Source: Daphnia pulex (Eukaryota; Arthropoda; Branchiopoda; Diplostraca; Daphniidae). Taken from it: a DNA stretch of 64,000 nucleotides. Shown piece after piece: positions 1 to 64,000 of this stretch. The stretch is taken from contig NC_060024.1 in NCBI RefSeq assembly GCF_021134715.1, positions 12,028,001 through 12,092,000 of the forward strand. The letters are read 5' to 3'. Position numbers and translations under genes: made by a program. The notes under the pieces were generated by a model. The model had not been told where the DNA came from and searched no databases. It saw nothing but the letters and a program-made list of their open reading frames with translations. The number at the start of each line of letters is the position of its first letter. Positions within the stretch are counted from its first letter, which is position 1.

Positions 1-2775
1 TTTACAAATTACAACTATCTTATTTTCAACTTTTCCCTGCATGTTATTGTTCCTTTAAATATTATTTCGTAACTCATTGTTGACTTTTTTTATTTAGATA
101 AACAGCATCCCGTTTAATTGGAGAAACTTCCAGTGTCGGCCGAGTTAAGGATCTCGTCGCTTCCCCTTTCTCTAAAATGTGTATGCGAGTGTGGGTGTAT
201 TCAGCACGATGACTCACTTTTACCTATCCCTCCTGGTGGATTCAACTTTCCTGTGGATGAAGCACTTGGGGATGCCTGGCTGTGGATTTCCTAGGCACAA
301 AGGTAGGACAAATTCATCTCTATTCTTCCTTTTTGACTATTTGGGTGCGTTGATTTTAAATCGTTATGTAGTACGGAGTACGATTACTCCTGCCCATACA
401 GTTGGCTGAAACTGTTATCCCTTGCTCTTTTTGTTTTTTCTCAGTCAGGTTTCATTAAATAGTTCACGCGTAGAACCACCTCAGATCAGGCCTGTTTTTG
501 TACCTCGCAACTTTGTCTTAAACAATCAAATTCAGAAATATTTGAACTTGAAACACTTGAATCAAAGTAGGCTACAACTTGAAAAATTTTTTTGGAGGGT
601 CTTGCCGCCACACCAGCACTTCAGTAGAGTGCGGTTATAGGATGTGGCAACGCTCAATTCCATCAGCACTCAACAGCAAACCCCAGCAAACCCTATCTTT
701 TGAAAATGCACTTTCGACAACACAACAAGCCCCTCTACATTTACAGTTTATAATACTGACGTGAAAGATATGTGTTTACATACACAAGCGAAGAAACATA
801 ACGAAAACATGTTTTTCGGTCAGTTTTCCCGTGATATTATTGCCTCATTCAATCTGTTTTTCCGAAACTCTCGCCCGTTTATGAAAATACCGTGCACACA
901 TATTGCCTATAGAGAGAGAGATTGACGCTATTTGGGCGCCTACAGCACACAACATCGCCTAAGATATTCACCTATACCCATTGAGGAATAGGAAGAGGGA
1001 ACGGCTATAATGTTCGATGATGTGTTTTTCGACCACTGTGGCGGCCCTCACAGTCGTGGGAAGAACTCTGGCCCTCCTCAGCTGCGCCCTGTATATGACA
1101 GCAGCAGCAGAGGACCGTTTCACGGACAAACATATTCACCTCAAAGTGGATGAGGGAAGAAAAAGAGAGTCCATCGTCCAGTTTTCAGAGCTGTTCTCAT
1201 CATCGGTACACGGCAGCAGTTGTCGGTAAACGACCCTGTTGATCTTCCAGTGAAGGGAATCGAATCAATGAAACGGCTGATGGAACTCTCAAGTGGCTGA
1301 TTCAGGGACGTCCAAAAGATATGTGCTGTGCCGCCGGCTCATTCACATATAAATGTATAACCCTGTTATAGTCTCTAATACAGTCTCTAGCGGCGATGGT
1401 ATATAAAGCGGCGTACAGCAGCAAACGAGAGAGAAAGAGATGGATGAGCATCATCATTTATGAAGCTCCGTGCATATAGGCCTATAGTGCGATCAGTAGT
1501 TTATTGCCGCTCCATTTTGCATCTATACACAATATCAAAAGGAGCGGTGTATAAATATCCCCCCCACAAACCCTCTTACCCCCTACCGAGAATTCATGAA
1601 TGCGCATGTATCTATGCAGCTACTACACCACCACCAGTCTGCGGTGTAGTATACATTTATCCCATTCTTTCTAGCCGTGTTCTCAACGACGTTGAAATCA
1701 GAAGCGTGAACACTAATAATAGATTAGGCCCTCAAGTGTTGTAGGTACTAGGCCCTTTTGCTCCGAATGGGAAAGAATATTTTCAAGTGCCTCTACTGAC
1801 CGATAATAACCATTTACGGTCATCTGTATACACCATTGGCGAGATGTGTCCAGCTGCCACGGGAAAAGGAAAGAAAGGTGTGTGCTGGAAAAAGTTGAAA
1901 CGTTTTCCAATATAATTGGTGGAACAAACAAATGTTCATCGATGACATTTTCGCATCGCCTTTTTTTTCTTTTGGGGGTGGGACTCGATAATTAACGCCA
2001 TATCGTCGAGACTGTTTAAGTGTTTAGATATATACACACACACACACACAGCGGGATAGATATATGCATGACAAGCGTGTGATGGAAAGTTCCCAGCGCT
2101 AATTGGCCATCGTAAATCTGCTGCCTTGTCCGAGATGATCTAAACTGCTTCTTCCCACAGGAGTAGCCCATAAACGTTCGTCATGGCCACAGCAAAAGTG
2201 ATTACAGCACCATAAGATATAGCGCCCTGTTGTCGTCCAGTCTCACCGTTTCAAAGTAACATGAATCTCTTTTTCTCCCGCATCTCTCCCTGCAACTAAT
2301 GTTTGCGCGTGAATCAAATGCTCCCATCGGGAGACCTAGCACCGGAGAAGTATAACCACCACTTAGCGATGTCGTACGAGATTCTGTTCTGGGTAAACAC
2401 CCGTTTGTCATATCAGAAAACCCGCCCTCTCTCTCGGCCATATCAAGGTGCGAACAACGTGATCAAATAAACGCACAGTTGATGTATATGCCGAATACGA
2501 TATGACCATCCCCCCAGCCCTATGCTGGCGTGATCACTCTGCGCCTGTCCCTCGGCGCACTATGCACCTTCCTCACGCTCCTGAAGAGAGAAAAGAAGAT
2601 TATTTACGACTTGTTATTTTCTTATGTATTTTTCTCTCTCTCTCGTTTTCATTCGATGGCATTGAAGAGGAAGACCAGCACAGCAGTTGCACAGGTGATT
2701 TTACAATTTTGGTCGGAAACATCCGCTCGGCTACTGCCAGTTTGTCGCAAGACGCTCCGCTGAACTGAACGCGTG
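1..2775. other. 5' flank of the homeobox gene, no gene assigned
   Basis: I find no convincing coding exon here. A donor-like AAAG/GTAGGA at about 303 and a T-rich acceptor at about 443 could bracket an intron, but every way of joining the flanking frames meets a stop within a few codons. A short AC microsatellite lies at 2034-2050. The stretch from about 900 to 2750 is of mixed composition and could hold promoter or enhancer DNA for the downstream homeobox gene, or the end of a gene lying off the window. Nothing in the sequence decides this. Confidence 0.5.
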
Positions 2776-3856
2776 ATGACGGAGCGGAAGCCAAACAATC
2801 GCAAGGATTTTTCCATCGAGCGCATCCTCGGTGTTGAGCGCTCGGACGATCGGCAAGAGATAGCGGCGGTTATTAAAGACGTTGAATTATCAGCCGCCAG
2901 CAGTTCCAGCAGCAGTAGCAGTTGCGATGAAGAAGATTTATTCCGCCGCAACATTGAAGGGACGGTGACGGGAAATTCATCGTCCGCTCATTTTCCGGAC
3001 GCTTCTTCCTGGTTGCAAAACAGTTACGGTTGCCCGCCATTCTTTAACCGAGGATGGTTCAGTCAGACCATCCGACCGCCTTTCTTCACTCTTCAAGGTG
3101 AAGAGTTTTTTAAATGTTGTGTTTGTTTGGATGAATTATGTTGACGTAATTAATTTTTTTAGCACCGAAACCTGTCGGTCGGAGACATCGCCGACCAGGA
3201 GCCGATCGAAAACCGAGACAGGCTTATAGTGTCAAACAACTGGAGCAGCTCGAATCCGAATTTAAGGTATAGATTTTTCAAAATAAAATGTGTTTACGGA
3301 ACGTAACGACTAGGAAACACCCTAGATGGCAGTGAGTTTCCCGCTGGAAACACATATCCAGTATAACGGTCTATAATCTGATTTGTTGGAATTATTGGAC
3401 AACCATCAGGTGGACAAATACTTGAGCGTGAATAAGCGGATGGAATTATCGAAAAGCTTGTCGCTGACAGAAGTGCAGATCAAAACTTGGTTCCAGAATC
3501 GGCGCACCAAGTGGAAGAAACAAATGACGGCTCGATTTAAACTAAGCGCGGCTCCTTCGCCTATCGACTCGGCCAGCGGTAGGCCATTCATCAGCTCGAC
3601 GGTGCCATCGTTGTGGATGGTTGATTGGACGTCGTCAGCCCAACAACACCAAACATCCCAGCAGCAGCATCCAGTGGCTAATAACAACGTCGTGTACAAC
3701 AGCAATCTGTCGCCTTGGAATAAGACGATCCAGTCCCAACAACAGCCAGCGGCAGCCGGAAGGCGATTCGACGATCATCATCTTCTTATTCCTTGTGTCG
3801 TCGGACCGGCTCCTATCGACTCCCACAGGAGCGACACTCCGTCACAGCAGCCATAG
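2776..3856 (+). CDS. Bar/NK-related (lms/Nedx-like) homeodomain transcription factor
   Basis: Three exons, 2776-3097, 3163-3266 and 3410-3856, join in frame (introns 65 and 143 nt) to give about 290 residues. The ATG at 2776 is the first after an in-frame TGA at 2761. Near the N terminus, FSIERILG is an eh1-like motif, the type that recruits Groucho co-repressors. A serine run follows. The homeodomain starts near RKPRQAYS at the end of exon 2 and continues in exon 3. It has F20, Y25, L26, W48, F49, N51 and R53, with Thr47 as in Bar/NK-type domains. Recognition helix: TEVQIKTWFQNRRTKWKK. The C terminus is Q/S/P-rich. Expected role: nuclear DNA-binding repressor. The KYLSVNKRMELSKSLSLTE stretch is Bar-like but not BarH proper; I think lms/Nedx or Bari is closest, from memory. 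The family is sure, the orthologue is not. Confidence 0.9.
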
Positions 3857-47393: not shown

Positions 47394-49093
47394 GTAAGTT
47401 CAAATTTGTTTGTTGCCCTTTACTTCATTAATACCTGTAGTCTGAAACCCTTACGTATTGAGTAATCTGTTTTCACCTTTCCTGCTTTTGGGTGAATCAG
47501 ATAGCGTTATTTGTTTAAATAGATTGTTGTGCCTTAGGATACTGTCTGTTATCCTTCTTATAGAGACGTTCCCAAAGTACTGTTTTTTTTAAATCAAATT
47601 AAAGCAACCTTGGTCAAGATAAATGGCAGTGAGGTTATACATATTGATCGCGATGCAATCCTTTAGTGACGAGAGGCTTCTCAGGAGTCGTCCGGTTTAA
47701 GCGAGAATCAATCTCATTGAAGATGCCAGCAAAGTTTGTCGCTAGGGTGCAATTGTATGTGGTAACAACGGGAACCAGCTTGTACATTTCGCTTGTAAAT
47801 CATTGAAAAGGTCGTTTTTTCCCCCCCTTATGTTAAAGGCATTAGCTGACCGAATAAAGAGACCACTAGTTCCGCCAATCCACGTATCCCCTTAAGCGGA
47901 TAACTGGCGCAGCTTGCTTGCCGTTAGATTAGATGATGCGGTAATCAATAGTGGTTTTTTTAGACTAGCTCTGAATTGCGGCGTATGTTATTTGTGTTTT
48001 CCCCCTAGCTCTCTGCCGTATAGCGCTATTCATTTCGCCATCTTTCTTTTTTCCTCATGTAGTAAGACTTGTTGAAATATCGACCTCACTCATTTTTTTA
48101 AGGACTTTCTGCACATCAGCTTCCCTTCTCGCCTTCACAGCTACTTCTTTTATTTTCCTGAATAATATGTCATCGTCGTAATGATGTCTGCTGCTTGCCG
48201 TTAAAAGCTTTTTCGAACAAAGGTGTACCGTGTGCGTACACGAGTAGGAAAGCTCCGATTCTGGGCAACGGAGCATATTAACTCTGGTGTATGATGCACT
48301 AGGCGCTTTCAAAAGAAATAGTCCCATCTCTCCAAAGAAGAGAGAGAGAGAGAGAAAAAAAATTGTTAATAATACTCGTGGGTGAAATCTGTCAAAGAAG
48401 TAGAACTCTTCAGTAACCAACAAGACATCAACAGGTATTGATTGAAATGTCTTGAAATCGATCAGGCCACGTTCTATGCTTTCAAAAGAAGTTCGCCGAG
48501 CGCGATAATGGAACGCGCGTTTTCTCTCCGTCGCTACCTTCCAATGCCGCCTTTGATATGCCGAGTCATTTCAAGTTCCAATAAAAGGCTACTTCGTTAG
48601 TCCACGGCGAAGATAGTGGCCTCCAAACAAATTGCAAGGAATTTAATCCCACCAGGGGGAGGTGATTTCCAAGTCACATGGGAACCGTACAATAGCGAAT
48701 GCTTTTGGCCAGTTCCTGTGGATTTTCCTCCTTGCAGAATGTCTCCTATGGGTTTTCCTATCGATCAATCTGTTGTGCAGAGCGCAACACGTTTCACGGG
48801 ACATGGAACATTCAAATGAGTGGGATGCAAAGGGGGATGCGGAAGGGTCACAATTTACACTGTGACATTTACCTCATTGCAAGATGTAGGGGGGCTACGT
48901 ATCGACTGCTCCAACACTCTTGGGTGTTTCTTGTATGGAGGGGATCGTTAATTTTCATCACGAAACACCCGCTCTTTGAAGACGATCGATCGTTTCACCT
49001 GTTTCCCAAACTTGATATTATTGGCTGTAGTTTTTGTTTTGTTTTTTTTTCTTTTTTCATCAATTTTATTTTTTTTTTTATTTTTTTTGGTAG
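47394..49093 (+). other. Probable first intron of the calexcitin gene
   Basis: It is bounded by GTAAGT at 47394 and a long T tract ending in TAG at 49093. The AG microsatellite at about 48337-48357 produces a misleading Ser/Leu-rich frame on the minus strand. I see no nested gene. Confidence 0.45.
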
Positions 49094-49111
49094 GTTAATA
49101 AAGAACCAAAT

Positions 49112-50369
49112 ATGGCAATGTCAGATTTCCGTCGCAACAAATTGATTTACGTCTTCAAGGCTTTTTTCGGTTTGTTCACTTTTCTCATAACAAGATTTCA
49201 ATTAATGATGTTATCTTCTTTCGTCGCAAAATGTTTCCTTCCCATAGATGTGGATAACAGTGGCGCCATCGATCAACAAGATTTTCGCCTGGCTGCCGAG
49301 GTATATTAACAGGATTCCCTTTTCATTTTTGTTTTTTTCCTGTCCCTTTTATGTAGGGTAGTCTGTTTGAAGTAATTGGTTTCTTCCGTGAAGTATGTTA
49401 TTGTCCTTGGTTTATCTTCAAAACGGTGTTCGTTTCCCCACTACCCAAACGCAGATTTAAGATGGATTGATAGGCCCATCACTTTCACGTAAAAGTCTGG
49501 AACCTTTCTGTTTTTTTGTTTAAAAAAAAAGGACTATTCGCGTGTTTCACGAGTCTACCCGATTCGAAAGCATTCGACTCGACCCGCTTTCACGTGACCA
49601 CCTAAAATTCTTTGTCGTTGTGTATAGTTCGATGTTCGACTCCCGTGACCGAAATACCTGCCAAAGTAATTTAACGCCACTTCTTGTTCGTGTCTAGCGC
49701 ATATGTCGAGTGCACGGATGGAGTGTGAACGAGGGCAAGGGCGCCCAAGTATTGCAGCGACTTCTCGACGTCTGGGAGGCCCTTAAAAGAGCTGATTCCG
49801 ACAACGACGGTTCGGTAAGATTGGCTTCTTTTATTGTATGAGAAACTGCACTCGCATGTAACAAATATGGCTTTTGTTGCAAAAAATGTCTCTAAGGTTG
49901 ATCAAAAAGAGTGGTGTGCCATGTGGGAAGCTTACGCCAAGGGCGAAACTGATTACCAGGAATGGCAGGACAAATATCGAGATTTTTACTTTAGCATTAT
50001 GGACACCTCAGGTTGGAAAGAATTTTAAAAGTCATTCGTCAAATACTGTCTCTTAATCATATCGCGTTTATTTTGAATTTTATCAGGTGAAGGAACAATT
50101 GAACTAGATGAATTTGCGGCAGTGAACAGACGTAACGACGTTTCGGACAATGACTGCTCCGAAGCTTTTAAATTGATGTCCAAGGTAAGTTGGCTGCAGA
50201 GAGCTTTCTTATTTTTAAAAGCGGTTTCTTAAAAGAGTTGAATGGTGTTTGGCAGGACAATTCGGTTGTTGTGAATTCGTCCACTTTCGCTCAACTGTGG
50301 AATGAGTTTTTCACTTCGGACGATCCTTCATCCCCCGGAAATTATATTTATGGGAAATTGAAGTTCTAA
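49112..50369 (+). CDS. Calexcitin-like EF-hand calcium-binding protein
   Basis: Six exons, 49112-49169, 49248-49300, 49698-49814, 49897-50011, 50087-50184 and 50256-50369, join in frame to 184 residues, the usual size of calexcitins and sarcoplasmic calcium-binding proteins. The start MAMSDFRRNKLIYVFKAFFD matches that family closely. EF-hand loops: D20-D31 (DVDNSGAIDQQD), D70-E81 (split by the exon 3/4 junction) and D112-E123 (DTSGEGTIELDE). The fourth site, around residues 148-160 (SKDNSVVVNSS), lacks calcium ligands and is probably dead. The C terminus has the family's DDPSSPGNYIYG. Role: cytosolic calcium sensor or buffer. Squid calexcitin also acts on K+ channels and ryanodine receptors, but that is not shown here. 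The ATG at 49112 lies 18 nt after the inferred acceptor. Confidence 0.93.
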
Positions 50370-52163
50370 ACTAAAGTTCATGTGGCACATATCTATAGTT
50401 TTTAACATTCCAGTTATAGAGAAACTGAATAATTCAGTTAAATATGGGAGGGAATCTGCAATGACCTTCTATAATTTACCACTTCTTCAATTCAGAACTG
50501 GTATGCCATTTCTTTACCCTCACTTGCTTTAGAAGTTTTCTTACCTTTTTCTTGTAATCCACTCCTCCCTATCTTCCAAATAACATCCCCTGTGCTGCTG
50601 TGTTCTCCTTTGATCAATACAAAATAAGGAAAATGTTTCAGCTCGGTGCTGACAACCATCTGCTACTCAATTATATTTTCATGTTAGATTACGCAATTGC
50701 TCGTAACCAAGAAGAAACTTCCTCTAGGAAGGGCCTGAAACCTAGCTCCTGTAAATTGAGACATAGATCTGACACTAATCAAAATAATACTATTTTTTCA
50801 TCGCGGTTGCCCGTCAGACAGCTATTGGTGCTTTAAGCCTTATTTCTCCTGCGTGCACGTTGTTGTTTCCTTGGGATACGACAATGTAGGTTTAATATAA
50901 AGATGCATTCAATCTCTTTTCTTCCTCGTCGGTAATTGGGATTCAAACGCTTCCGCCATCAATCAAACGCTAAAAGACGCCGGCAGTGTGAATTATCGCA
51001 ATCGTGACGTGCGAAAAAAAGCCAGAAAAAAAAACACACAAATCAAGAGGCAGAAGCCTCGGCTGTCTTGTCAAGACACGAAAATAAAGCACGAGTATAT
51101 CCCAGTTGAAGTCGAGGACTTACTTCCGCTCATTTCATTTCGTACCAAGCCCCCAACTCATTACTAGGTAAGTATACGTTCCTAGTATGGTTCTTTAGGG
51201 CTTTCTCGACGTGCTCCATATCTGAAGTTGTAAAAACAAAGCCCTTGTTAACAAAAATGAAGGAATATAACCGGAATCATTAGGACACGATTCTATTCTT
51301 GCTTATTTGGCTGCTGGAGAAATTTTGACAACAAATATTCTTGTCATTTTTTCCCCTTGGTCTCGTACATGCTGATGACCCTCTAAGAGGATATGAAAGC
51401 TGGCATCATAGATCATGACATTGCATTTCAAATGGATGATGAACTAACGAGATTGAAACATAAGCCACGGCGACAAGAGTCGGGAAGCCTTAATAACTGC
51501 TGTAACACCCAAAACAATTGTTTTCCCCTCTCCTCTTTTGTTCAAGAAGAAAATAAATCTTTGGTCTGAACTGAAAGTCGGTAAAGATTAATTAATTATA
51601 ATGATTTATGCCTGATTTACGAAGTTACAGTGGATATTTATAGTGAATACAAATACTGACTGTCAAGGACGTTGATAAAAGCGGGACTTTTTGAAATTGG
51701 CGTGAAATTTGAGGAAAATAAAAAGGCATAAAAAGGATAACAAGAATGATGAAATTGATAATGAAAGGCGTTTAAAAATAGGAGTGAAACTCGACTTGAT
51801 TGAAATCGCTTTCATCGCGAACGCGGACTGTCAAGTAGAGATAAGAAGGACATTTTCAAAATTTGAATCCGATAAGGAGACCACACCAGAATATTTTTAA
51901 ATAGATTTTTTTTTCTTCAAGAGGGAGATCCAAAATGTGGGCTAAGATTTTTATTTTTGTATATCACGGTAATTTCTAATTTGATCCTGCGGACAGAAGG
52001 TCTGTAAAATGACAACAGTGTAGAATAATTTGACAACTATGTCTTTGTTAGTTTGTTTACGTTTACTCACCACGTCTAGTAAATTGTTCAATCGTCTCTA
52101 CTGGCACCGGGAATACCTTTAAACCAGTAAGTGTTTTTCAAATGTATTATTTAATAATTCGGT
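50370..52163. other. Calexcitin 3' flank and a possible orphan first exon
   Basis: The first part should hold the calexcitin 3'UTR. At 50930-51170 the sequence is GC-richer and ends in ACTAG/GTAAGTATA, a near-perfect donor at 51171, as in a non-coding first exon. I cannot find the exon it would join. Another donor-like CCA/GTAAGTG lies near 52129. A 63-codon frame at 51709-51900 lacks an ATG and is not called. Confidence 0.35.
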
Positions 52164-54413
52164 GATTTCGTCTGTTGTTTTGTGTGATGCTGCGGTGGTG
52201 GCTTTTTATGGTGAAGACTGAAGACGAGATATAAATTGGAGGGGAGAATATTACGTGAGAATCAAAGTTATTTGCATTTGTTTGTTGGATCTTTCAATTA
52301 AGTGTTAACTGATAACGAGCTAGAGCGGACATTGTTTTAGTGTTTCTTTTAAACGTTTCTTCTTTCTGACGCTAGACAGCATAGCCTTTGATCATTTTCC
52401 ACTATAAGAAGCATCAGTTTAGTTACGTTTATGCAGTCCACTGTAAGATGCAAAAGTTTAGTAACGTTTACTTTGCACATCTCTGAAGAAATTTCTCGCT
52501 TCCGCTATAACGAAATTTTGGGTGATAACTGTCAGTTTCTGTTTCAGCAACAAAGATCACTTGTTTGATTTTTAATAATGTGGGTTTTTTTCTACTTCCG
52601 GTTTTCTCATTTCTGTCAGTAATTCAGTAAATATTCATCTGACGCACAAAAGAACCACATATTCGTGAATCTCGTCAAATTTGTGGTAAAGTTCATGTTT
52701 TTTTTTTGTACGTACGCGTACTTCCGGTTTCGAGAATTATCCTGAACTATAGGTCAGGAAAAATCTCGATTTTGACCAAATTCTGGATTTCATTTAAATT
52801 ACACCTAATCGACCCCAAATTTCACGTAGATCACGAATTTTTGGTTTATCTTGTCGACAGCTCAATGGTTAGGGAGCTATCGCTTACTTCCGGTATACTT
52901 CCGGAAAATTTGCATGAAACTAACAAGTGAGCTTTGTTCTCTGTAGAATTCTAAAGATTCCATGCTAATTTAAGCAAAGAGAGATGGTCTTTTTGATTAC
53001 TTCTATGACTTGTGACTATCTAAGGCAAGTGCTTTAGATATTGAGTTTTGAACGTGACAAATAGATGGCGTGAAAGAATGTTGTTTGTTGTGTCACATAT
53101 ATGGGCTAATGGCTGTTCGTTGTCAAAAGTTCAGCTACAGCTATCTTCTTCGAAAATTACCAATGAATTTGTTGGTAAATTGATTAGATTTCCTGTGCAA
53201 TTTGTTTGGCATGTGTTGTTTACCGAATATTTGTTTAATAACATCATTATTTCTCCTCCATTTCCAGGAAAAAATGTGAAAGGTGCATGAAGCCAGTACC
53301 GTCAACTATTGTGTTAAAAATCCTGGTATCCTACAGAATATGTCATCCAAATGACCAAATAACAGAGTGGTAACAACCAATGCTAGCTTTAGTAAAGTAT
53401 TGCTTGAACATAGTCTTCTCATCTTTTATTAGGATTCATCACTATTATCGGCTGAATTATTCTATGGGACTTGCCAGATCACCAACCGCCAAAGCATGGA
53501 CCAATTTCTCATTCCATCTTCTAGAGAACCTTACATAACCGATTGGTGGTTTAGTGTTTAAGTTTACTTGTCATGTCACTAAACTTATTTTGTTGCAGTC
53601 TTATAGGTATTTAAAGTATTGTTCTGCACTTAAGTCTATCAATGTTTAAGTTTAATTTTTCTTTTAGATCATAGACATCAAGCACATTGATGCCACAAAT
53701 TATAGACAAGGTAACTTTATTTTTTATTTACAGGTTTTAAGTTTCTAATGTAGCATGATGATGATAGACTTTATGAGAAGTCATGTTGTTTGAAGAAAAA
53801 GGACTATACAGTCGACAAGGTTCTTTGCTAACCCGTTGGCTGCTACCCTTGAATCTCCCTGTTTACTTCCTTACACGGGTCCTCTTGATTTAAGGTACTG
53901 TTTTGAGTGTTTTCTGTTGCTACAACCTTGTTTGAATATTATCCAAATAAATGTTCATTCTGCTTACAGGGTAATCCTTCGCTACTGATCATACACCCAC
54001 TTGTGAAAACCGACGAGAGAATGCTGTAATCCAAGACTGATACATTGTGTAGTTGTTAGATAAATGACAAGTGCATATCTGGGCTCCCTTCTTTTCTGTG
54101 GCCCCGTTTCCCTAACTAACCACTAACCAACGCCCGCCGGTGGTCACTCACCCGCTGTGAAACCAGGAGGAGGGGAGGGCTCTGGTCGAACGGGGACTTG
54201 GAAGGCGCATGATCCGATGAAAACTTTTGGAGGGTCATGAGTCTAACCCGGAAGCCTAGTATGACTACATCTCCCCGGAAAAACTTGCCTCGTACTTCTC
54301 TCTTCTTCTCGGTCCAGATACTATCTCTGGGGGCCGTAGACAAATCCTATAACAGCATGTGCGATTTAAACAATGCAACCCACTACCCAATGAAACAAAT
54401 AGCCATGGTTTAT

Positions 54414-54470
54414 GTTTTGTGGAAATCTCTGTCAGTCAAGTTACAAAGACTATGCAGATTTCCGCAAAAC
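54414..54470. repeat. Short fold-back remnant in left arm
   Basis: GTTTTGTGGAAATCTCTGTC is followed about 20 nt later by its imperfect reverse complement ending in GATTTCCGCAAAAC. The counterpart in the right arm (58430-58741) has the same ends but about 255 bp more interior, so this copy looks internally deleted. Confidence 0.7.
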
Positions 54471-54693
54471 TAAAACATCGCTTTTTGTCTCATTGCCGCA
54501 GCGGTGGTGGCGGGTTGCGTTTAAACTCGTGCAGAAGAAAATCGTCTTAAACCGGACGCTCTGTTTATTTAATTTTTTGAACATTTTAAAAAGAAAATAA
54601 AAATTATTTCATGTAGAGTATTTTTTTATTTATTACAGATATTACATGGTTAAGGTTTGAAATTGGTTTATAGGGTTGAGGGTATAGATTTAA

Positions 54694-54821
54694 GGGTTGG
54701 TAGGTGTATGTTTTCGGGGTTTGAAGGGTTGGTAGGTGTATGTTTTCGGGGTTTGAAAGATTGGAAGGCATATGTTTGTGGGGTTTGGAGATTAATTGGT
54801 AGGGATACGTTTGTAGGGTTA
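54694..54821. repeat. 32-bp minisatellite, four units
   Basis: Units at 54694-54725 and 54726-54757 are identical; 54758-54789 and 54790-54821 are diverged. The right palindrome arm has only three units (58112-58207, reverse orientation), so the arrays changed copy number after the arms were duplicated. Confidence 0.85.
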
Positions 54822-55353
54822 TAGATTAACTGAATTTTTATCCAAACTTGAAATATCCTCCAACATCCACCACTAACCCTTCCCAACCCCAAAACATGTT
54901 TATTATTTGTTTGACATAAACATCCCATATTTGTTTTTGTTTCTTCTGAACTTATAAACGGTAAACTGCAATAGTCTCACGATGACAATTTAACAAAATA
55001 TGATGCAACTTCGGTAACACACCATCAGCACCAAGGAACGGTCAATTGAACTTGATGTAGAAAGATCTTTCACCAGCATAGGCTTCAACAACGTGCCACA
55101 TCGGACAGCAACTACGCGAACATAAAACACTAAACCTATAACCAAAATGAAATGAATTAATCTAGATGAATAAATGTCACTTTACGTTATTTACAAGAGT
55201 TAAAGCCCTCAGCTGGCTGCATCAAATCCATATGTACGTGCAACAAAGAAGCTCATACTTTTACCAGACTGATAATCCTATTTATAAAAAAAAAACTCAA
55301 TTACTATCAACTATCAAGGAAAAAATGTCTTAAATTACAAAAACAAAAATTAC

Positions 55354-55597
55354 AGAAGTCAAAGTAAACTATGCAAACACAATCCTTCAGAATAAAAGTT
55401 GCAAAAGAACCTACAGCTAGCAAACATTTACAAGGCAGGCAACTGAAAATACTAAAACAAATAAGTAAGGAGACGAGTCACCAACTAAGTCTGTAGTCTC
55501 ACAGTTAGAAAGTTGAACTTATTTACCTGAATAGTTCTGAAGTGTTTCTTAAAAAACATACAGCCGGTACAGAAAAAAGAGGAATTTATCCTTGGCA
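55354..55597 (+). repeat. First copy of an old direct duplication
   Basis: It begins near GAAGTCAAAGTAAAC and includes CCTACAGCTAGCAA and CATACAGCCGGTACAG. A diverged second copy, same orientation, starts about 540 bp later at 55895. The right arm matches this first copy more closely than the second. Confidence 0.75.
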
Positions 55598-55876
55598 TGG
55601 TTGTCCAATTTCAAAGAGCTCAATTTCACCTACATGAGGGAAGAAAAGAGTTACTTATAACAGGAAATCAAATGCGGTTTTTTTTTTCTTCTTTTCAGAC
55701 CTGGAGTGTTACAATTCTGGCTCGGGCATCACTCAATGAGGGGAAAGAATTGAGGTAATCGCTAGTTGTGATTGTGATGGGTGTCAATCTTTTCGTTGAT
55801 ATCCAACTCTTACAGCACTCTGTGCAGAACTCTACAAACAAATAATGGTTAAAGCTTTATTAAAATATCTATTATA

Positions 55877-57024
55877 AGGACACAGGATCTCAAATGAAGT
55901 TAAAGTTAACTACACAATTCTTTGGAATAAATGTTGCAAAGGAACCTACAGCTAGCAAGCTTTTCCAAGATAGACAACTAAAGTTCTACAACAGGCAAGT
56001 TAAGACATAGTTACCAACTAACTTAAATCTCACAGTTCGAAAGTTGAACATATTTATCTGATTTCTTCTGAATTGTTTCTTACGAAACGTACAGCCGGTA
56101 CAGGAAAAAGAGACGACATCTTGGCAAAATGTACTCAGGCTCTGCATCTCTGCACATGATCAGCTGGAATTTCCAAGTAGAAATTATAGGCTAGGTTACC
56201 ACACAAATAACTAAATTCACACACAAATAATTAAGATTCAGTAACATCTAACAATCCAAACGGGAAATACCATTTTTATGAAGAAATATGTGAGGAAGGA
56301 AAATACGCCGTACGAATAACGATACGAATAACGATCAGTGTTCGAAAAAAAATGGCGGCGACTCGGCGAGCGAAGACTTATTGTTCAATATGAGTAGTTG
56401 TAAATGTGAATCATAGATGGCTATGAAACTTGTATTATAGTCTGCTAAAAAAGAGTCAAATAAAATGTCTGCACACGATTGTCAACCTACGTAATTTCAG
56501 CAGTTTGTGTCAACTAGACCCATTTCTAATTGTCCCACATCATTTCGCAAAAATGAAAAAATTCAAAAAGTGTATAGTAACTATCATCTTTTTACAATGG
56601 CGGTTAGTATCATTAGATTATTCGTGAATGCCTGAATGGCATGTGCTGTAACCTGCTTTCTGTTTAAATTTATTAGGAGATGACGAACTCCGTTCGCTGG
56701 ATCTGAGTCCGAACAAGTCGTTGAATATGAGATCTTACGGACGTAAAGTATACAAGAGAGCAGCAGTTCACGTTCAAACATAACGAGCTTTTGATCAAGA
56801 CTGGGCCTCAGTTAGGCCAGGTGCCAGGTCTTTCCATCCAGCTAGTGTCCTGCTGGCCTTGCATAGTTGCATCAGGGCTGGGTTGTTCCGGGGGCAACAC
56901 CACCCGGTAAATTTGCCAAGGTAGAGTTGATGAAGATCACCAACTTTCTTCACTTGACACCACCCACTATTGAATTGAGAGACAAATGCCAAGCATTGAA
57001 AAGTGAGAATCCTGCAGGCTGCAG
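55877..57024. other. Loop of the giant inverted repeat
   Basis: About 1.15 kb of unpaired DNA between the arms. Its left part (55895-56127) is the second copy of the direct duplication. The remainder, about 56130-57024, looks unique, is AT-rich and has no credible gene; frames of 65 codons at 56430-56627 (+) and 56584-56992 (-) have no recognisable features. Confidence 0.75.
55895..56127 (+). repeat. Second copy of an old direct duplication
   Basis: It shares CCTACAGCTAGCAA, AGTTGAACATATTTA and GTACAGCCGGTACAGG with the copy at 55354-55597 but has many substitutions, so it predates the much more similar palindrome arms. Confidence 0.75.
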
Positions 57025-60000
57025 TATAATAGATAGTTTAATAAAGCTTTAACCATTATTTGTTTGTAGAGTTCTGCACAGAGTGCCGTAAGAGTTGGAT
57101 ACCAACGAAAAGATTGAAAATCATTTACCTATCACAATCACAACTAGTGATTACCTCAATTCTTTCCCCTCATTGAGTGATGCCGAGCCAGAATTGTAAC
57201 ACTCCAGGTCTGAAAAGAAGAAAACAAAACCGCATTTGATTTCCTGTTATAAGTAACTCTTTTCTCCCCTCATGTAGGTGAAATTGAGCTCGTTGAAATT
57301 GGACAACCATGCCAAGGATAAATTCCTCTGTTTCCTGTACCGGCTGTACGTTTTGTAAGAAACACTTCAGAACTATTCAGGTAAATATGTTCAACTTTCT
57401 AACTGTGAGACTACAGACTTAGTTAGTCGGTGACTATCTCTTACCTTATTTGTTGTAGATTTTTCAGTTGTCTACCTTGTTAATGCTTGCTAGCTGTAGG
57501 CCTGTAGGTTCTTTTGCAACTTTTATTCTGAAGGATTGTGTTTGCAAAGTTTACTTTGACTTCTGTCTTTTTTGTTTTTGTAATTTAAGACATTGTTTCC
57601 TTGATAGTTGATAGTAATTTAGTTTTTTTTATAAATAGGATTATCAGTCTAGTAAAAGTATGAGCTTCTTTGTTGCTGCCCAACGTACACATGGATTTGA
57701 TGCAGCCAGCTGAGTGCTTTAACTCTTGTAAATAACGTAAAGTGACATTTATTCATCTAGATTAATTAATTTCATTTTGTTAATAGGTTTAGTGTTTTAT
57801 GTTCGCGTAGTTGCTGTCCGATGTGGCACGTTGTTGAAACCTATGCTGATGAAATTTCTTTCTACATCAAGTTCAACTGGCCGTTCCTTGGTGCTGATGT
57901 TGTGTTACCGAAGTTGCATCATATTTTGTTAAATTGTCATCGTGACTTGCAGTTTACCGTTTAATCGTTTATAAGTTCAGAAGCAACAAAAACAAATATG
58001 GGATGTTCATGTCAAACAAATAATAAACATGTTTTTGGGGTTGGGAAAGTGGTGGATGTATGAGGGGGGAAGGAGGATATTTCAAGTTTGGATAAAAATT
58101 CATTTAATCTATAACCCTACAAATGTATCCCTACCAATTAATCTCCAAGCCCCACAGACTTGTACCTTCCAATCCTTCAAACCCCGATAACATACACCTA
58201 TCAACCCTTAAATCTATACCCTTAACCCTATAAACCAATGTTAAACCTTAACCATGTAATATCTGTAATAAATAAAAAAAACACTATATGAAATAATTTT
58301 TATTTTCTTTTTAAAATGTTCAAAAAATTCAATAAACAGAGCGTCCGGTTCAAAACCATTTTCTTCTGCACGAGTTTAAACGCAACCCGCCACCACCGCT
58401 GCGGCAATGAGACAAAAAGCGATGGTTTAGTTTTGCGGAAATCTGCGTCAGTCAGGTTACAAGTTTTTCATAATCAATAACTTCTGTTGAATTTTGCATC
58501 TACTATACTGGTGCAAATAGCTATCCTATGTGTTTGGTAGTTGATGGTTGTTTAAAAAACAAACAATGGTGAGTTTTTTTGGCTACTCAGAACACCCCAT
58601 TGTTTGTTTCTTAAACAACCATTTTGTTAACTACCAAACACATGGAATGGCGATTTGCACTAATAGATTACATGCAAAATTCTACGCGAGTTGTGGAATA
58701 GGAAAAATTTGTAACTTGACTAACGCAGATTTGCGCAAAACATAAACCATGGCTATTTGTTTCATTGGGTAGTGGGTTGCATTGTTTAAATCGCACATGC
58801 TGTTATAGGACATGTCTACGGCCCCCAGAGATAAGTATCTGGACCGAGAAGAAGAGAGAAGTACGAGGCAAGTTTTTCCGGGGAGATGGTAGTCATACTA
58901 GGCTTCCGGGTTAGACTCATGACCCTCCAAAAGTTTTCATCGGATCATGCGCCTTCCAAGTCCCCGTTCGACCAGAGCCCTCCCCTCCTCCTGGTTTCAC
59001 AGCGGGTGAGTGACCACCGGCGGGCGTTGGTTAGTGGTTAGTTAGGGAAACGGGGCCACAGAAAAGAAGGGAGCCCAGATATGCACTTGTCATTTATCTA
59101 ACAACTACACAATGTATCAGTCTTGGATTACAGCATTCTCTCGTCGGTTTTCACAAGTGGGTGTATGATCAGTAGCGAAGGATTACCCTGTAAGCAGAAT
59201 GAACATTTATTTGGATAATATTCAAACCAGGTTGTAGCAACAGAAAGTAGTACCTCAAATCAAGAGGACCCGTGTAAGGAAGTAAACAGGGAGATTCAAG
59301 GGTAGCAGCCAACGGGTTAGCAAAGAACCTTGTCGACTGTATAGTCCTTTTTCTTCAAACAACATGACTTCTCATAAAGTCTATCATCATCATGCTACAT
59401 TAGAAACTTAAAACCTGTAAATAAAAAATAAAGTTACCTTGTCTATAATTTGTGGCATCAATGTGCTTGATGTCTATGATCTAAAAGAAAAATTAAACTT
59501 AAACATTGATAGACTTAAGTGCAGAACAATACTTTAAATACCTATAAGACTGCAACAAAATAAGTTCAGTGACATGACAAGTAAACTTGCACACTAAACC
59601 ACCAATCGGTTATGTAAGGTTCTCTAGAAGATGGAATGAGAAATTGGTCCATGCTTTGGAGGTTGGTGATCTGGCAAGTCCCATAGAATGATTCAGCCAA
59701 TAATAGTGATGAATCCTAATAAAAGATGAGAAGACTATGTTCCAGCAATACTTTACTAAAGCTAGCATTGGTTGTTACCACTCTGTCATTTGGTCATTTG
59801 GATGACATATTCTGTAGGATACCAGGATTTTTAACACAATAGTTGACGGTACTGGCTTCATGCACCTTTCACATTTTTTCCTGGAAATGGAGGAGAAATA
59901 ATGATGTTATTAAACACATATTCGGTAAACAACACATGCCAAACAAATTGCACAGGAAATCTAATCAACTTACCAACAAATTCATTGGTAATTTTCGAAG

Positions 60001-61008
60001 AAGATAGCTGTAGCTGAACTTTTGACAACGAACAGCCATTAGCCCATATGTGACACAACAAACAACATTCTTTCACGCCATCTATTTGACACGTTCAAAA
60101 CTCAATATCTAAAGGAATGACCTTAGATAGTCACAAGTCATAAAAGTAATCAAAAAGACCATTTCTCTTTGCTTAAATTAGCACGGAATCTATAGAATTC
60201 TACAGAGAACAAAGCTCACTTGTTAGTTTCATGCAAATTTTCCGGAAGTATACCGGAAGTAAGGGATAGCTCCTTAACCATTGAGCTGTCGACAAAATAA
60301 ACCAAAAATTCATGATCTACGTGAAATTTGGGGTCGATTAGGTGTAATTTAAAAGAAATCCAGAATTTGGTCAAAATCGAAATTTTTCCTGAACTAGTTC
60401 AGGATAATTCTCGAAACCGGAAGTACGCGAACGTACAAAAAAAACTTGAACTTTACCACACATTTAACGAGGATCACGAAAATGTGGTTCTTTTGTGCGT
60501 CAGATGAAATATTTATTAAACTATTGACAGAAATGAGAAAACCGGAAGTAGAAAAAAATCACATTATTAAAAATCTAACAAGTGAGCTTTGTTGCTGAAA
60601 CAGAAACTGACAGTTATCACCCAAAATTTCGTTATAGCGGAAGCGAGAAATTTCTTCAGAGATGTGCAAAGTAAACGTTACTAAACTTATGCATCTTACA
60701 GTGGACTGCATAAACGTAACTAAACTGATGCTTCTTTTAGTTAAAAATCAAAAATGATCAAAGGCTATGCTGTCTACAGTGTCTAGCGTCAGAAAGAAGA
60801 AACGTTTAAAAGAAACATAAAACTTAAAAGTTAAAAGCAATGTCCGCTCTAGCTCGTTATCAGTTAACACTTAATTGAAAGATCCAACAAACAACGGCAA
60901 ATAACTTTGATTCTCACGTAATATTCTCCCCTCCAATTTATATCTCGTCTTCAGTCTTCACCATAAAAAGCCACCACCGCAGCATCACACAAAACAACAG
61001 ACGAAATC
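57025..61008 (-). repeat. Right arm of giant inverted repeat
   Basis: Reverse-complement counterpart of 52164-55876. It is about 270 bp longer, mainly because of the intact fold-back element at 58430-58741, and it lacks one minisatellite unit. The outer end (CAACAGACGAAATC) stops abruptly at 61008. I see no target-site duplication at the two outer junctions. Confidence 0.95.
58430..58741. repeat. Fold-back (MITE-like) element inside right arm
   Basis: About 312 bp whose halves are reverse complements of each other: GTTTTGCGGAAATCTGCGTC at the left end against GACTAACGCAGATTTGCGC at the right, and TGTGTTTGGTAGTT against AACTACCAAACACA towards the centre. A short unpaired loop lies near 58567-58590. 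It has no coding capacity beyond a chance frame. Structure and size fit a non-autonomous fold-back transposon. Confidence 0.75.
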
Positions 61009-64000
61009 CCCAAGGTGATAATGGACGTCAGTCCAACTTCTACGATGAGGAGAAGGAAGACCTCTTGATATTCTGTTATGTGCTTTGTATGTGGCATCTG
61101 TTTGTGATTCCAGACGTTCTAGGATCAGGGCAACAGCTCTTAAGACAATGGACTGCTGATAGAATACCCAGTTGGTAAAGTAAACCTGCCTGTCATACAG
61201 AATATTTTTCTATTAAATGTTAAGTCAATTTTATAACAAACTTCGATGTTTTCATTTTCGAGTTTGGCGAGTTCCCTAAAAAAAGGCCATTTGTCCGCCT
61301 TCGAGATTTAGTGGCCTGCTCTAGGCAAACGCCAAAATATTTATCATAAAAGGTTAGTAGTATTATTTCTATGCAATCAGCCACTGGCTATAAAAATATT
61401 AGTGATTTCGACAAATCCGACGACAGACATGTACATAACGATAGATCTGTTAGTTACCTTGTCCATTGTTAGTTATTCAATGTGTACTTCTGCTCACTTA
61501 CTTTATACCGGTAGTTACTTTCGCCCATAAGATCCTCTAGGTCCGTTTTGGTTATTATCGTTCAACAGATAGACCCATTCGTTTCTCACTACCAGACATC
61601 GATGCATCGCGAGCCGAATTTCTGCAACATATAAAATAAGCTGAAAACAATAATTCCTCTTAAAACTTCTCTAACCACTTCACGTTCAGTTCAGCTTCTT
61701 TTCTTCTTGTAGGAAAGGATCCTATTCCTACAATGTAGAGCAGACATCATTGGGGCTTCAACAAAGGTGCATCGTCAGGGATCGGCTTGGAGCTGAGATG
61801 TGTTATTAGGGGGTTGGGGCATTACACAAAGGATCACCAGTAATAAATGTTCCTGCCACCAGGTGGTGGTGTTTCGTTGGGCTTAAAAAGCACGTATTCT
61901 GATAAAATTGCATAAACCGCAGTAACTCTTACTCTCTGACTATTGGTTTGTCGCATATTGAATAAATTTTATACGATATGAGGATTTGAGTAGAGGTTAT
62001 GAGTAGAATAAACTCAGTAAAGGGTCCTAGCTCCTACTGAATTATTTCTCGAATCGTAACGAAATTTTGGCAGTCTTTGATTTTCACTCCAATGCAGCTC
62101 TAGCCTCTAGTACACAAAAAAACATTTTGTGAACCTTTGTGCTTTGTTTTATCACTTGAAAAAGACGGTGAAAACACCAAACAGACCTGATGTCTAAACG
62201 CCATCTGTGAGTAGGCTATACAACGACATAATTCTGACAAATCCGTTCAAATAAGATGTCACCTTCATTTCTCGGTTATTTAGTGTCATTTTTCTGATTT
62301 TTGCCTTGTTTCAGTTAAGGCACTTCTGAGCGACTCATCAAAGAAATGACCTATGAAAGAAAAGATAACAAATATAAATTAAATAGTACTATAAACACGA
62401 CCGATTAGTCATTAGTAGAGACAACATCATTAAATAACCCTTCATTAAATACTTATTTTTAAAAATTATGCTTTAGTCATGCGATTGAATCCAAAAGGTT
62501 AAAACTTCGTAAACTAGAATCCAAAAATTAGCCAATGCGCCATTTACTGGCGGTTGTACTACTAGATCACTAGGATCGCAAATCTAGTTCAGGACAGACA
62601 TAGTAAAAGCACGCTCTTTGAACTCCCGCGTGTATTCGGATAGAACAGCATTCTATAACCTTAAACAGTGTCGGAGTTAGATCTCAATAGAACTCTAGAA
62701 AGCAACTCTAGAAGGCCAAAGTACATAATGTGTATGCAGTCTATGCTGAATGTCGGCTGAATGTCGAATAGCACATTCCCAAAAGCTGGTTTTTCTAGCC
62801 GACAGAATAACCGTATAGGTGGTTCCTAGGTGAAAGCGAGGGTTCTAAAATAACTTCGCTGAAGGGTAACGTGGCATATTTTTTAAAAAATGTGTCACAA
62901 GGTTAATTGCAGCAGTAAATGTGATCATGTCTTTAGATTTAAGCTGTTCAAAGATATCAGGGGGAAATTCATTTATTTTCCGTAGAAGGATCTGTTGCGT
63001 CATGTAAGGAACTCATACAGACAGCTCGTTTTAAATCATATAAAATTTTGTCAACCACGACTTCGTCCCAATTAAAGCCCAGTTGCGCATTTCGGTTAAT
63101 TAATCAATAACAGGAATTAAGTAACAAATGCTATCTCAGCTACGTGTGTTGAGACGACGAGAAACAAATACTTGATTTGAAACATACGAGCCTAGTACAC
63201 TAGCCCCGTAAAATTGCATCGCCATTGTAATAACAACATTTGTAGTGGAGAGATTCTTTAAAGGCATAGGATAGGATTACGTAACCCAGAAAAACCAGTT
63301 TTTGTTTGGTCTGAGACACCGTCTCAAAAATATAAAAAATATCATTGTTGTATAATAAATCTTATGTTAGGCTAAATACTATCTTTTGGCATTGTTTTAA
63401 CATCTACTGAGGTTATCTTGAAGTAGCTTTCTAGGTTCTTTTAAATCTACGTCGAGAAGAAACCAGCAGAATAGGAAACATTCAAATTTATTTAAAAAAA
63501 AAGGTGCGGTGGTGCAATGGTGGTTGAAAAAAAGCAACCAAACGAGCTTGACAAAAATAGATGATGGTTACGAATGGAAAAAAATTGCCGGGAATTTCAA
63601 AAACAAGTCATAACTACATAACTCCTTCATTCATTCTTTCATTCATTCATCAACACTGTCTTAAAAACAAGTTCAAGTACCAGCACCGATGATACATATC
63701 TGGCGAGAGATTAGAAATCAAATCAGAAAAAGAAATCTGAGAAAGGCGAGTCTGGTTTCGCAACCAGTAAAAGTTCGTGAGAGCGAAGTTTGCATGCATG
63801 ATCATTAAGGTGCTGATTCATTTACAGAAATGTAACCCATAGTCAACTTGAAAACTATATATTATGGTGCTGTCCTTGTTTTTGTTTGGTTGCGCAAGAA
63901 CGAGACACCGCACATGGAACCAGTTTGTTTTTGTTTTGCGGATCAAATGTATGTGGGTCAATAACGTATAAGCCAGACGAGAACCCTAAAAGTTAACGCA
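61009..64000. other. Right flank, no gene recognised
   Basis: Three kilobases of AT-rich DNA with no open frame long enough to call, no recognisable splice-bounded exon, and no tRNA or rRNA. A short ATTC-type run occurs near 63630-63650. It may be intergenic or part of an intron of a gene beyond the window. Confidence 0.5.

What the first reader, a model, noticed from the sequence alone, without database searches (positions are those of the whole stretch)
52164..61008. 8.8-kb palindrome with arms of about 3.7 and 4.0 kb
Almost the whole interval folds back on itself around a 1.15-kb loop, with few differences in the parts aligned by eye. High similarity between arms suggests a recent inverted duplication or ongoing gene conversion. 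If transcribed across the loop it would make a very long double-stranded RNA that could feed an siRNA pathway. No transposase or target-site duplication is visible, so it is not an obvious single transposon.
Basis: partly seen in the sequence, partly recalled or inferred. Interest (0 to 1): 0.75.

Follow-up and report, generated by a model that had tools for sequence, protein, structure and literature searches.

The report
Dispersed palindromes carrying a ribosomal-gene fragment
In the water flea Daphnia pulex this 8.8-kb mirror-image stretch is one copy of a repeat family scattered over several chromosomes, built from a piece of a mitochondrial-ribosome gene and an inverted duplicate of the DNA upstream of it, with arms that partly overwrite one another.

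Summary
The palindrome is real. Arms 52161-55876 and 57025-61011 are 95.7% identical at aligned sites around a 1,148-b loop. They differ by substitutions and indels, so a read-level artefact is unlikely. It is neither unique nor a recent local inverted duplication. The loop is the 5' end of a broken copy of the mitochondrial ribosomal protein gene mS35. The arms match a sequence (U) that stands once, not inverted, directly upstream of an apparently intact mS35 gene on C6. Layout: U, mS35 to mid-exon 4, U inverted. The same exon-4/U junction occurs at 26 places on six contigs, so an old inverted duplication was dispersed; a second junction type shows it arose at least twice. In most sister palindromes tested the two arms are each other's closest relatives. 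Over most of the window copy they are not: right arm and loop match a palindrome 1 Mb away, though a short tract (59257-59547, p=0.0014) points to local arm-to-arm gene conversion. How copies move is unresolved: no transposase or target-site duplication was found. A dsRNA role is untested.

The parts
52161..55582 (+). Left arm, U segment: from 52514 inward it matches the sequence upstream of the intact mS35 gene on C6; the outermost 353 b found no BLAST match there
   Evidence: pieces between 52514 and 55581 match par 346-571, 571-2138, 2409-3084 and 3492-3832 at 75-84%
55583..55876 (-). Left arm, inner end: inverted copy of mS35 exon 3 to mid-exon 4 (arm extended into the loop)
   Evidence: 55585-55876 matches par 5099-4798 at 90%; C8:12083695-12083832 minus, residues 146-194
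55877..57024 (.). Loop: second copy of the U end (55896-56112), mS35 upstream region, pseudo-exons 1-2
56492..56581 (+). mS35 pseudo-exon 1 (1 TAA)
   Evidence: C8:12084492-12084581
56673..57004 (+). mS35 pseudo-exon 2, frame changes and stops
   Evidence: C8:12084673-12084867 (1 TAA) and 12084849-12085004 (1 TAG)
57025..57324 (+). Right arm, inner end: mS35 exon 3 and about the first 47 b of exon 4, up to the founding junction
   Evidence: junction 31-mer at 57311-57341, +
57325..61011 (-). Right arm, inverted U
61012..61229 (+). Right-arm extension found in other copies, absent from the left arm; end approximate
59257..59547 (.). Candidate arm-to-arm gene conversion tract (longest run of shared variant sites)
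   Evidence: 19 sites, permutation p=0.0014; windows 59025-60024
54066..54325 (+). 260-b block, 97-100% identical in 31 of 33 arm copies aligned, in left arm
58825..59093 (-). Same block in right arm

Best explanation
The window holds one degenerate copy of a dispersed palindromic repeat family of D. pulex. Origin (shown by junctions): a locus consisting of repeat U upstream of mS35 suffered an inverted duplication that joined mid-exon 4 of mS35 to an inverted copy of U, giving U - mS35 5' half - inverted U. That unit, or its right half, then spread to at least 22 loci. Later (tree and run tests, partly inferred) the arms of many copies were homogenised by arm-to-arm gene conversion, to nearly 100% in several, over only a short tract in this one. 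In this copy and its sister on C8 the left arm was also lengthened into the loop, so that it carries an inverted exon 3-4. The means of dispersal (transposition of a non-autonomous fold-back-like element, or replication-based and segmental duplication) is inferred and open. No working gene product or RNA of this copy is shown; most likely it is selectively neutral, recombinogenic repeat DNA.
For:: loop exons belong to mS35; mS35 exons 1-5 open on C6, with a single U upstream; the same junction in 16 of 16 arm sequences from 13 loci, chosen because BLAST had shown it there; L026 and L019 have small insertions beside it; junction 31-mer (up to 3 mismatches) at 26 places on C2, C3, C6, C8, C9, C10, none for the reversed control; L019 and L026 are missed by it; of 40 scored outer-arm matches (663 first-look candidates) 20 form 10 inverted pairs 6.5-9.5 kb apart, all 10 with the same polarity; 20 are unpaired; arms pair with each other in 6 of 9 (segment B), 7 of 8 (A) and 4 of 5 (C) two-armed loci; no other match to the window's left flank except the arm tip and one 54-b stretch, so this is a separate site; mosaic and candidate conversion tract.
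Against: Arms pairing together could also reflect repeated inverted duplication of a single arm; for L009 and L014, whose centres are symmetric, that is likely. The outer ends of the repeat were not reached, so the unit may be larger (L009 and L010 palindromes run past the fetched DNA). The outermost 353 b of the arm were not matched upstream of the intact gene. No TSD at the window's apparent ends. Some half copies could be ancestral rather than derived. The 260-b block is far more alike among copies than the rest, which a simple history does not explain. The conversion p value is the lowest of five pairs tested, uncorrected, and three other pairs also fall below 0.05 (0.015, 0.036, 0.039), so mosaicism among copies is general.
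Confidence: 0.75

Rival explanations
1. It is a non-autonomous fold-back DNA transposon (Galileo type): the arms are long terminal inverted repeats, mS35 was captured in the middle, and a transposase elsewhere moves it.
For: Dispersed copies with inverted arms in constant polarity, a window site with its own left flank; solo arms exist, as in Galileo (PMC4168063 passages).
Against: No transposase recognised: none by eye among ORFs of 120 aa or more in L009-L044, none in Pfam scans of 16 ORFs and 7 database proteins; no TSD; ends of the two arms differ by about 218 b; L009/L010 palindromes run on into longer arms; U exists un-inverted beside the intact gene.
Confidence: 0.3
2. Segmental or break-induced inverted duplication, template switching: palindromes arise on the spot at breaks next to short inverted repeats and spread by unequal exchange and segmental duplication, no transposase needed.
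For: At least two junction types (exon 4/U; exon 5/U); L009 and L014 are centred on a 160-200-b inverted-repeat sequence that also caps half copies L015 and L023; many copies lie on C8, C6 and C3; direct, not inverted, arrangement on C7 and C5.
Against: The shared junction on six contigs needs many interchromosomal copies; the window's left flank has no duplicate found.
Confidence: 0.4
3. Hairpin-RNA locus: transcription across the loop makes a long dsRNA that yields endo-siRNAs against U-family transcripts or mS35.
For: Arms carry inverted mS35 exons; 36 of 921 21-mers of mS35 exons 1-5 occur exactly in the window's inverted part, 191 and 226 of 921 in two C6 copies, 80 in L009.
Against: No expression data; only 1,809 of 3,967 right-arm 21-mers pair perfectly; the sister copy L010 keeps only 12 of 921.
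Confidence: 0.07
4. Assembly artefact (palindromic reads joined).
For: Some sister palindromes have arms 99.8-100% identical, which an assembler could create.
Against: Window arms differ by 4.3% plus indels and, over most of their length, have different nearest relatives.
Confidence: 0.03

Closest known systems
Fold-back / long-TIR DNA transposons (Galileo, P superfamily, Drosophila)
   Same: Dispersed copies with long inverted arms, solo-arm and two-arm forms
   Different: No transposase, TSD or defined termini found here; arms are a repeat also found un-inverted upstream of a host gene; arms joined through host-gene sequence
Gene-converting chromosome palindromes (human Y; bdelloid Adineta vaga; springtail Folsomia candida)
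   Same: Inverted arms nearly identical in several copies, with signs of arm-to-arm conversion
   Different: About 9 kb, many copies of one family, no working gene pair seen in the arms; the window copy is only slightly homogenised. D. pulex was not screened in the survey of parthenogens (PMC7953838 passages)
Transposons with captured host-gene fragments (Pack-MULEs, Helitrons; recalled)
   Same: Intron-containing fragment of a host gene multiplied with a repeat
   Different: Parent gene itself stands next to the repeat; Helitron or MULE ends were not specifically searched for
Drosophila hairpin RNA (hpRNA) loci (recalled)
   Same: Inverted repeat homologous to a host gene
   Different: No small-RNA evidence; low identity to the gene for this copy

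Membership tests
Fold-back / long-TIR DNA transposon | Long inverted arms around a middle | tested here: met
Fold-back / long-TIR DNA transposon | Many dispersed copies | tested here: met
Fold-back / long-TIR DNA transposon | Target-site duplication | tested here: inconclusive
   no direct repeat abutting both apparent ends of the window copy (one 5-mer, not abutting); true outer ends not established
Fold-back / long-TIR DNA transposon | Transposase in the element or a related autonomous copy | tested here: inconclusive
   none recognised by eye among ORFs of 120 aa or more in L009-L044 or in Pfam scans of selected ORFs (29, 36, 69); whole family not read
Gene-converting palindrome | Arms nearer to each other than to any other copy | tested here: not met
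   over the whole arm 95.7% to its partner against 98.2% to L010; not sisters in any of 3 trees. Against this: in segment A (58708-59498) the window's arms are by a hair each other's nearest by identity (98.61% against 98.48%). Other two-armed loci: sisters in 6 of 9, 7 of 8, 4 of 5, the window counted among the misses
Gene-converting palindrome | Conversion tract between arms | tested here: met
   run of 19 sites, p=0.0014 (lowest of 5 pairs, uncorrected)
hpRNA / endo-siRNA locus | 21-22-nt RNAs from both arms | not testable with these tools
   no expression data

The most novel reading that the evidence does not exclude
The palindromes are a family of hairpin-RNA loci born from mS35 and its upstream repeat: arms bearing inverted mS35 exons, kept alike by conversion, yield siRNAs that dampen mS35 or the U repeat, a recurrent self-silencing arms race in Daphnia.
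Probability: 0.05. Interest if true: 0.85.

Novelty: new variant of a known kind. Interest (0 to 1): 0.5.

Why it matters
It gives a series of related palindromes with a candidate ancestor (U plus intact mS35), a shared founding junction, partly and nearly fully homogenised arms, lengthened arms and half copies. That makes palindrome birth, spread and arm-to-arm conversion directly testable in an animal with sexual and asexual lineages (recalled). It also warns that at least one annotated 'mS35-like' gene of D. pulex (P0017) has its best matches inside a palindromic C6 locus.

Tried and rejected
Transposase or coding content in the arms: no supported domain other than mS35 itself in database proteins. 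Known structured RNA: none at Rfam gathering scores in the window, nothing credible at lax E-values in 54000-54500, no tRNA (bacterial-code setting), the 260-b block not more structured than shuffles on either strand. TSD: none abutting the apparent ends. I first took 52161/61011 for element termini because many genome matches begin there; this was an artefact of where I cut the queries and I dropped it. I first took shared loops as proof of shared palindromes; the intact mS35 gene has the same upstream sequence, so the exon-4/U junction is used instead. L013, L031 and the C5/C7 copies did not show that junction. In one search hits covering under 85% of a segment were dropped before the trees. 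In some searches my hand-set exon edges of the intact gene were off by one base (exon 2/3 edge in 72, exon 5 start in both), so those printed translations break; the open reading of exons 1-5 rests on tblastn, where one TAG falls at the splice acceptor before exon 4; residues after 312 were not seen. Literature: no paper on D. pulex palindromes with gene conversion or on mS35 copies was evident in the listings (open-access library only; one search listed 10 of 20 papers); of these papers I opened passages of three (PMC2884549, PMC7953838, PMC5490193). Searches gave background listings.

Full report
WHERE. The window is G000:C8:12028001-12092000 of a 133.19-Mb genome in 13 contigs. A protein labelled [Daphnia pulex] comes from a contig of 14,242,098 b, exactly the length of C8, so the host is D. 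pulex.

OBSERVATION. The inverted repeat is there at the stated place: arms 52161-55876 and 57025-61011, loop 55877-57024. Arms are 95.7% identical over 3,661 aligned sites; the best inverted match scores 3,688 bits against at most 48 in 50 dinucleotide shuffles. The right arm carries a segment of about 260 b that the left lacks, and extends about 218 b further out.

NOT UNIQUE. The left arm with 124 b of loop as query gave 102 matching stretches, self and pieces of one locus included (40 of 1,046 first-look candidates scored). With the outer right arm as query, 40 of 663 candidates were scored (47 stretches); 20 of those 40 form 10 inverted pairs 6.5-9.5 kb apart on C4, C6 and C8, all with the same polarity as in the window, and 20 are unpaired. 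The window's left flank (49000-52160) found no other match except the arm tip and one 54-b stretch (that search skips very common words).

WHAT THE LOOP IS. An arm ORF of a C6 copy hit D. pulex 'mitochondrial 28S ribosomal protein S35-like' proteins. One of these, P0017, matches solved mS35 chains (E 3.6e-60). A D. pulex protein of 333 aa, P0144, looks full-length. Searching with it finds exons 1-5 (residues 1-312) at C6:1381734-1382993, the single TAG reported falling at a splice acceptor, and in the window pseudo-exons 1 (56492-56581), 2 (56673-57004) and 3 (57083-57196), plus an inverted exon 3 at 55695-55832. The window exons have stops and frame changes.

WHERE THE ARMS COME FROM. I read C6:1381650-1387250. 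The apparently intact mS35 gene has one, not inverted, copy of the arm sequence, U, directly upstream; the outermost 353 b of the window's arm were not matched there. So the palindrome is U, upstream region, exons 1-3 and about 47 b of exon 4, then U inverted. I extracted 16 arm sequences from 13 loci where BLAST had shown the exon-4/U junction: 16 of 16 have it at the same place, L026 and L019 with small insertions. Genome-wide the junction 31-mer with up to 3 mismatches occurs 26 times on C2, C3, C6, C8, C9 and C10, and the reversed control 0 times; four loci, the window among them, have it twice, facing outward, so 22 loci in all, a lower bound since L019 and L026 are missed. C6 copies L034 and L036 have a different junction, in exon 5, so inverted duplication happened at least twice. 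C5 and C7 copies (L035, L032, L033) look like direct repeats.

ARMS, CONVERSION AND THE WINDOW. In trees of three arm segments, the two arms of a locus are sisters in 6 of 9 (B), 7 of 8 (A) and 4 of 5 (C) two-armed loci, with 98.65-100% arm identity in those; the window fails in all three, L026 and L031 fail in B only. Against this, in segment A the window's arms are by identity just each other's nearest (98.61% against 98.48%). L026 is identical between arms in A and 85% in B, a conversion-tract pattern. The window's right arm and loop are nearest to L010 at C8:11.09 Mb (98.2% for the arm, 98.5 and 99.0% for the loop halves); the left arm is nearer to other copies. Between 59025 and 60024 the window's arms agree at 97.2-100% per 250-b window while the right arm falls to 95.9-97.5% against L010. 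The longest run of shared variant sites between the arms, 59257-59547, has permutation p=0.0014; it is the lowest of five pairs, uncorrected, and three other pairs have p of 0.015-0.039. This fits a left-to-right conversion in this copy; direction is inferred.

ARM GROWTH. In the window and L010 the left arm ends in an inverted exon 3-4; BLAST shows none in the left arms of L011, L012, L026 and L027. L009 and L014 are mirrored almost to the middle, around a 160-200-b inverted-repeat sequence that also caps the half copies L015 and L023. Copying across the loop edge, or a second inverted duplication at that sequence, would explain this; I cannot choose. L009 and L010 run to the end of the fetched DNA as palindromes of at least 11.3 and 12.5 kb.

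MECHANISM. Shown: a founding junction, many sites, partial homogenisation. Inferred: how copies move. No transposase, TSD or shared terminus was found, but the outer ends were not reached and only selected ORFs were scanned. The dsRNA idea cannot be tested here; 1,809 of 3,967 right-arm 21-mers have an exact partner in the left arm, and 36 of 921 21-mers of mS35 exons 1-5 lie in the window's inverted part, 12 in that of L010, 80 in L009, 191 and 226 in L034 and L036.

LITERATURE. Seen as passages: PMC7953838 lists palindromes in parthenogens and says D. pulex was not screened for lack of annotation; PMC5490193 reports 11 palindromes in F. candida; PMC4168063 describes Galileo; PMC2884549, D. 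pulex DNA transposons, mentions palindromes once, for Helitrons. hpRNA, Pack-transposon and sexual/asexual statements are recalled.

Noticed in passing
window 54066-54325 and 58825-59093: A 260-b block inside the arms is 97-100% identical in 31 of 33 arm copies aligned (about 92% in L021 and L022) while flanking arm sequence is often 73-90%; 441 first-look candidates genome-wide, the best 40 scored all at 99-100%; copies outside the arms (L015, L040, L041 flanks) are 79-85%. Sharp edges, no Rfam or Pfam match, not unusually structured. Selection, conversion or recent spread?
   Followed up: partly
L009:4870-5080, L014:4500-4670, L015:6450-6600, L023:8675-8890: A 160-200-b inverted-repeat sequence (starting like GCGGCGGATTAAAAGTACCCGACA) sits at the centre of two near-perfect palindromes and at the cut end of two half copies; a candidate seed for palindrome formation.
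   Followed up: partly
L045/L046, C6:1381650-1387250: The apparently intact mS35 gene of D. pulex has a dispersed repeat as its upstream region; P0017, an annotated mS35-like gene of D. pulex, has its best matches in the palindromic locus C6:3411631-3420614.
   Followed up: partly
window 58405-58767: Imperfect inverted repeat of about 360 b in the right arm, also upstream of the intact mS35 gene (par 2051-2486), largely missing from the left arm.
   Followed up: no
L013:8159-8800 and L035:3-569: Fragments that read like non-LTR retrotransposon coding sequence lie beside arm sequence (recognised by eye).
   Followed up: no
C12:8979214-8982239 and C12:8986591-8989741: The 203-b right-arm extension recurs as inward-facing pairs about 3 kb apart; no arm match was reported there in the capped lists. 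Perhaps the ends of another element.
   Followed up: no
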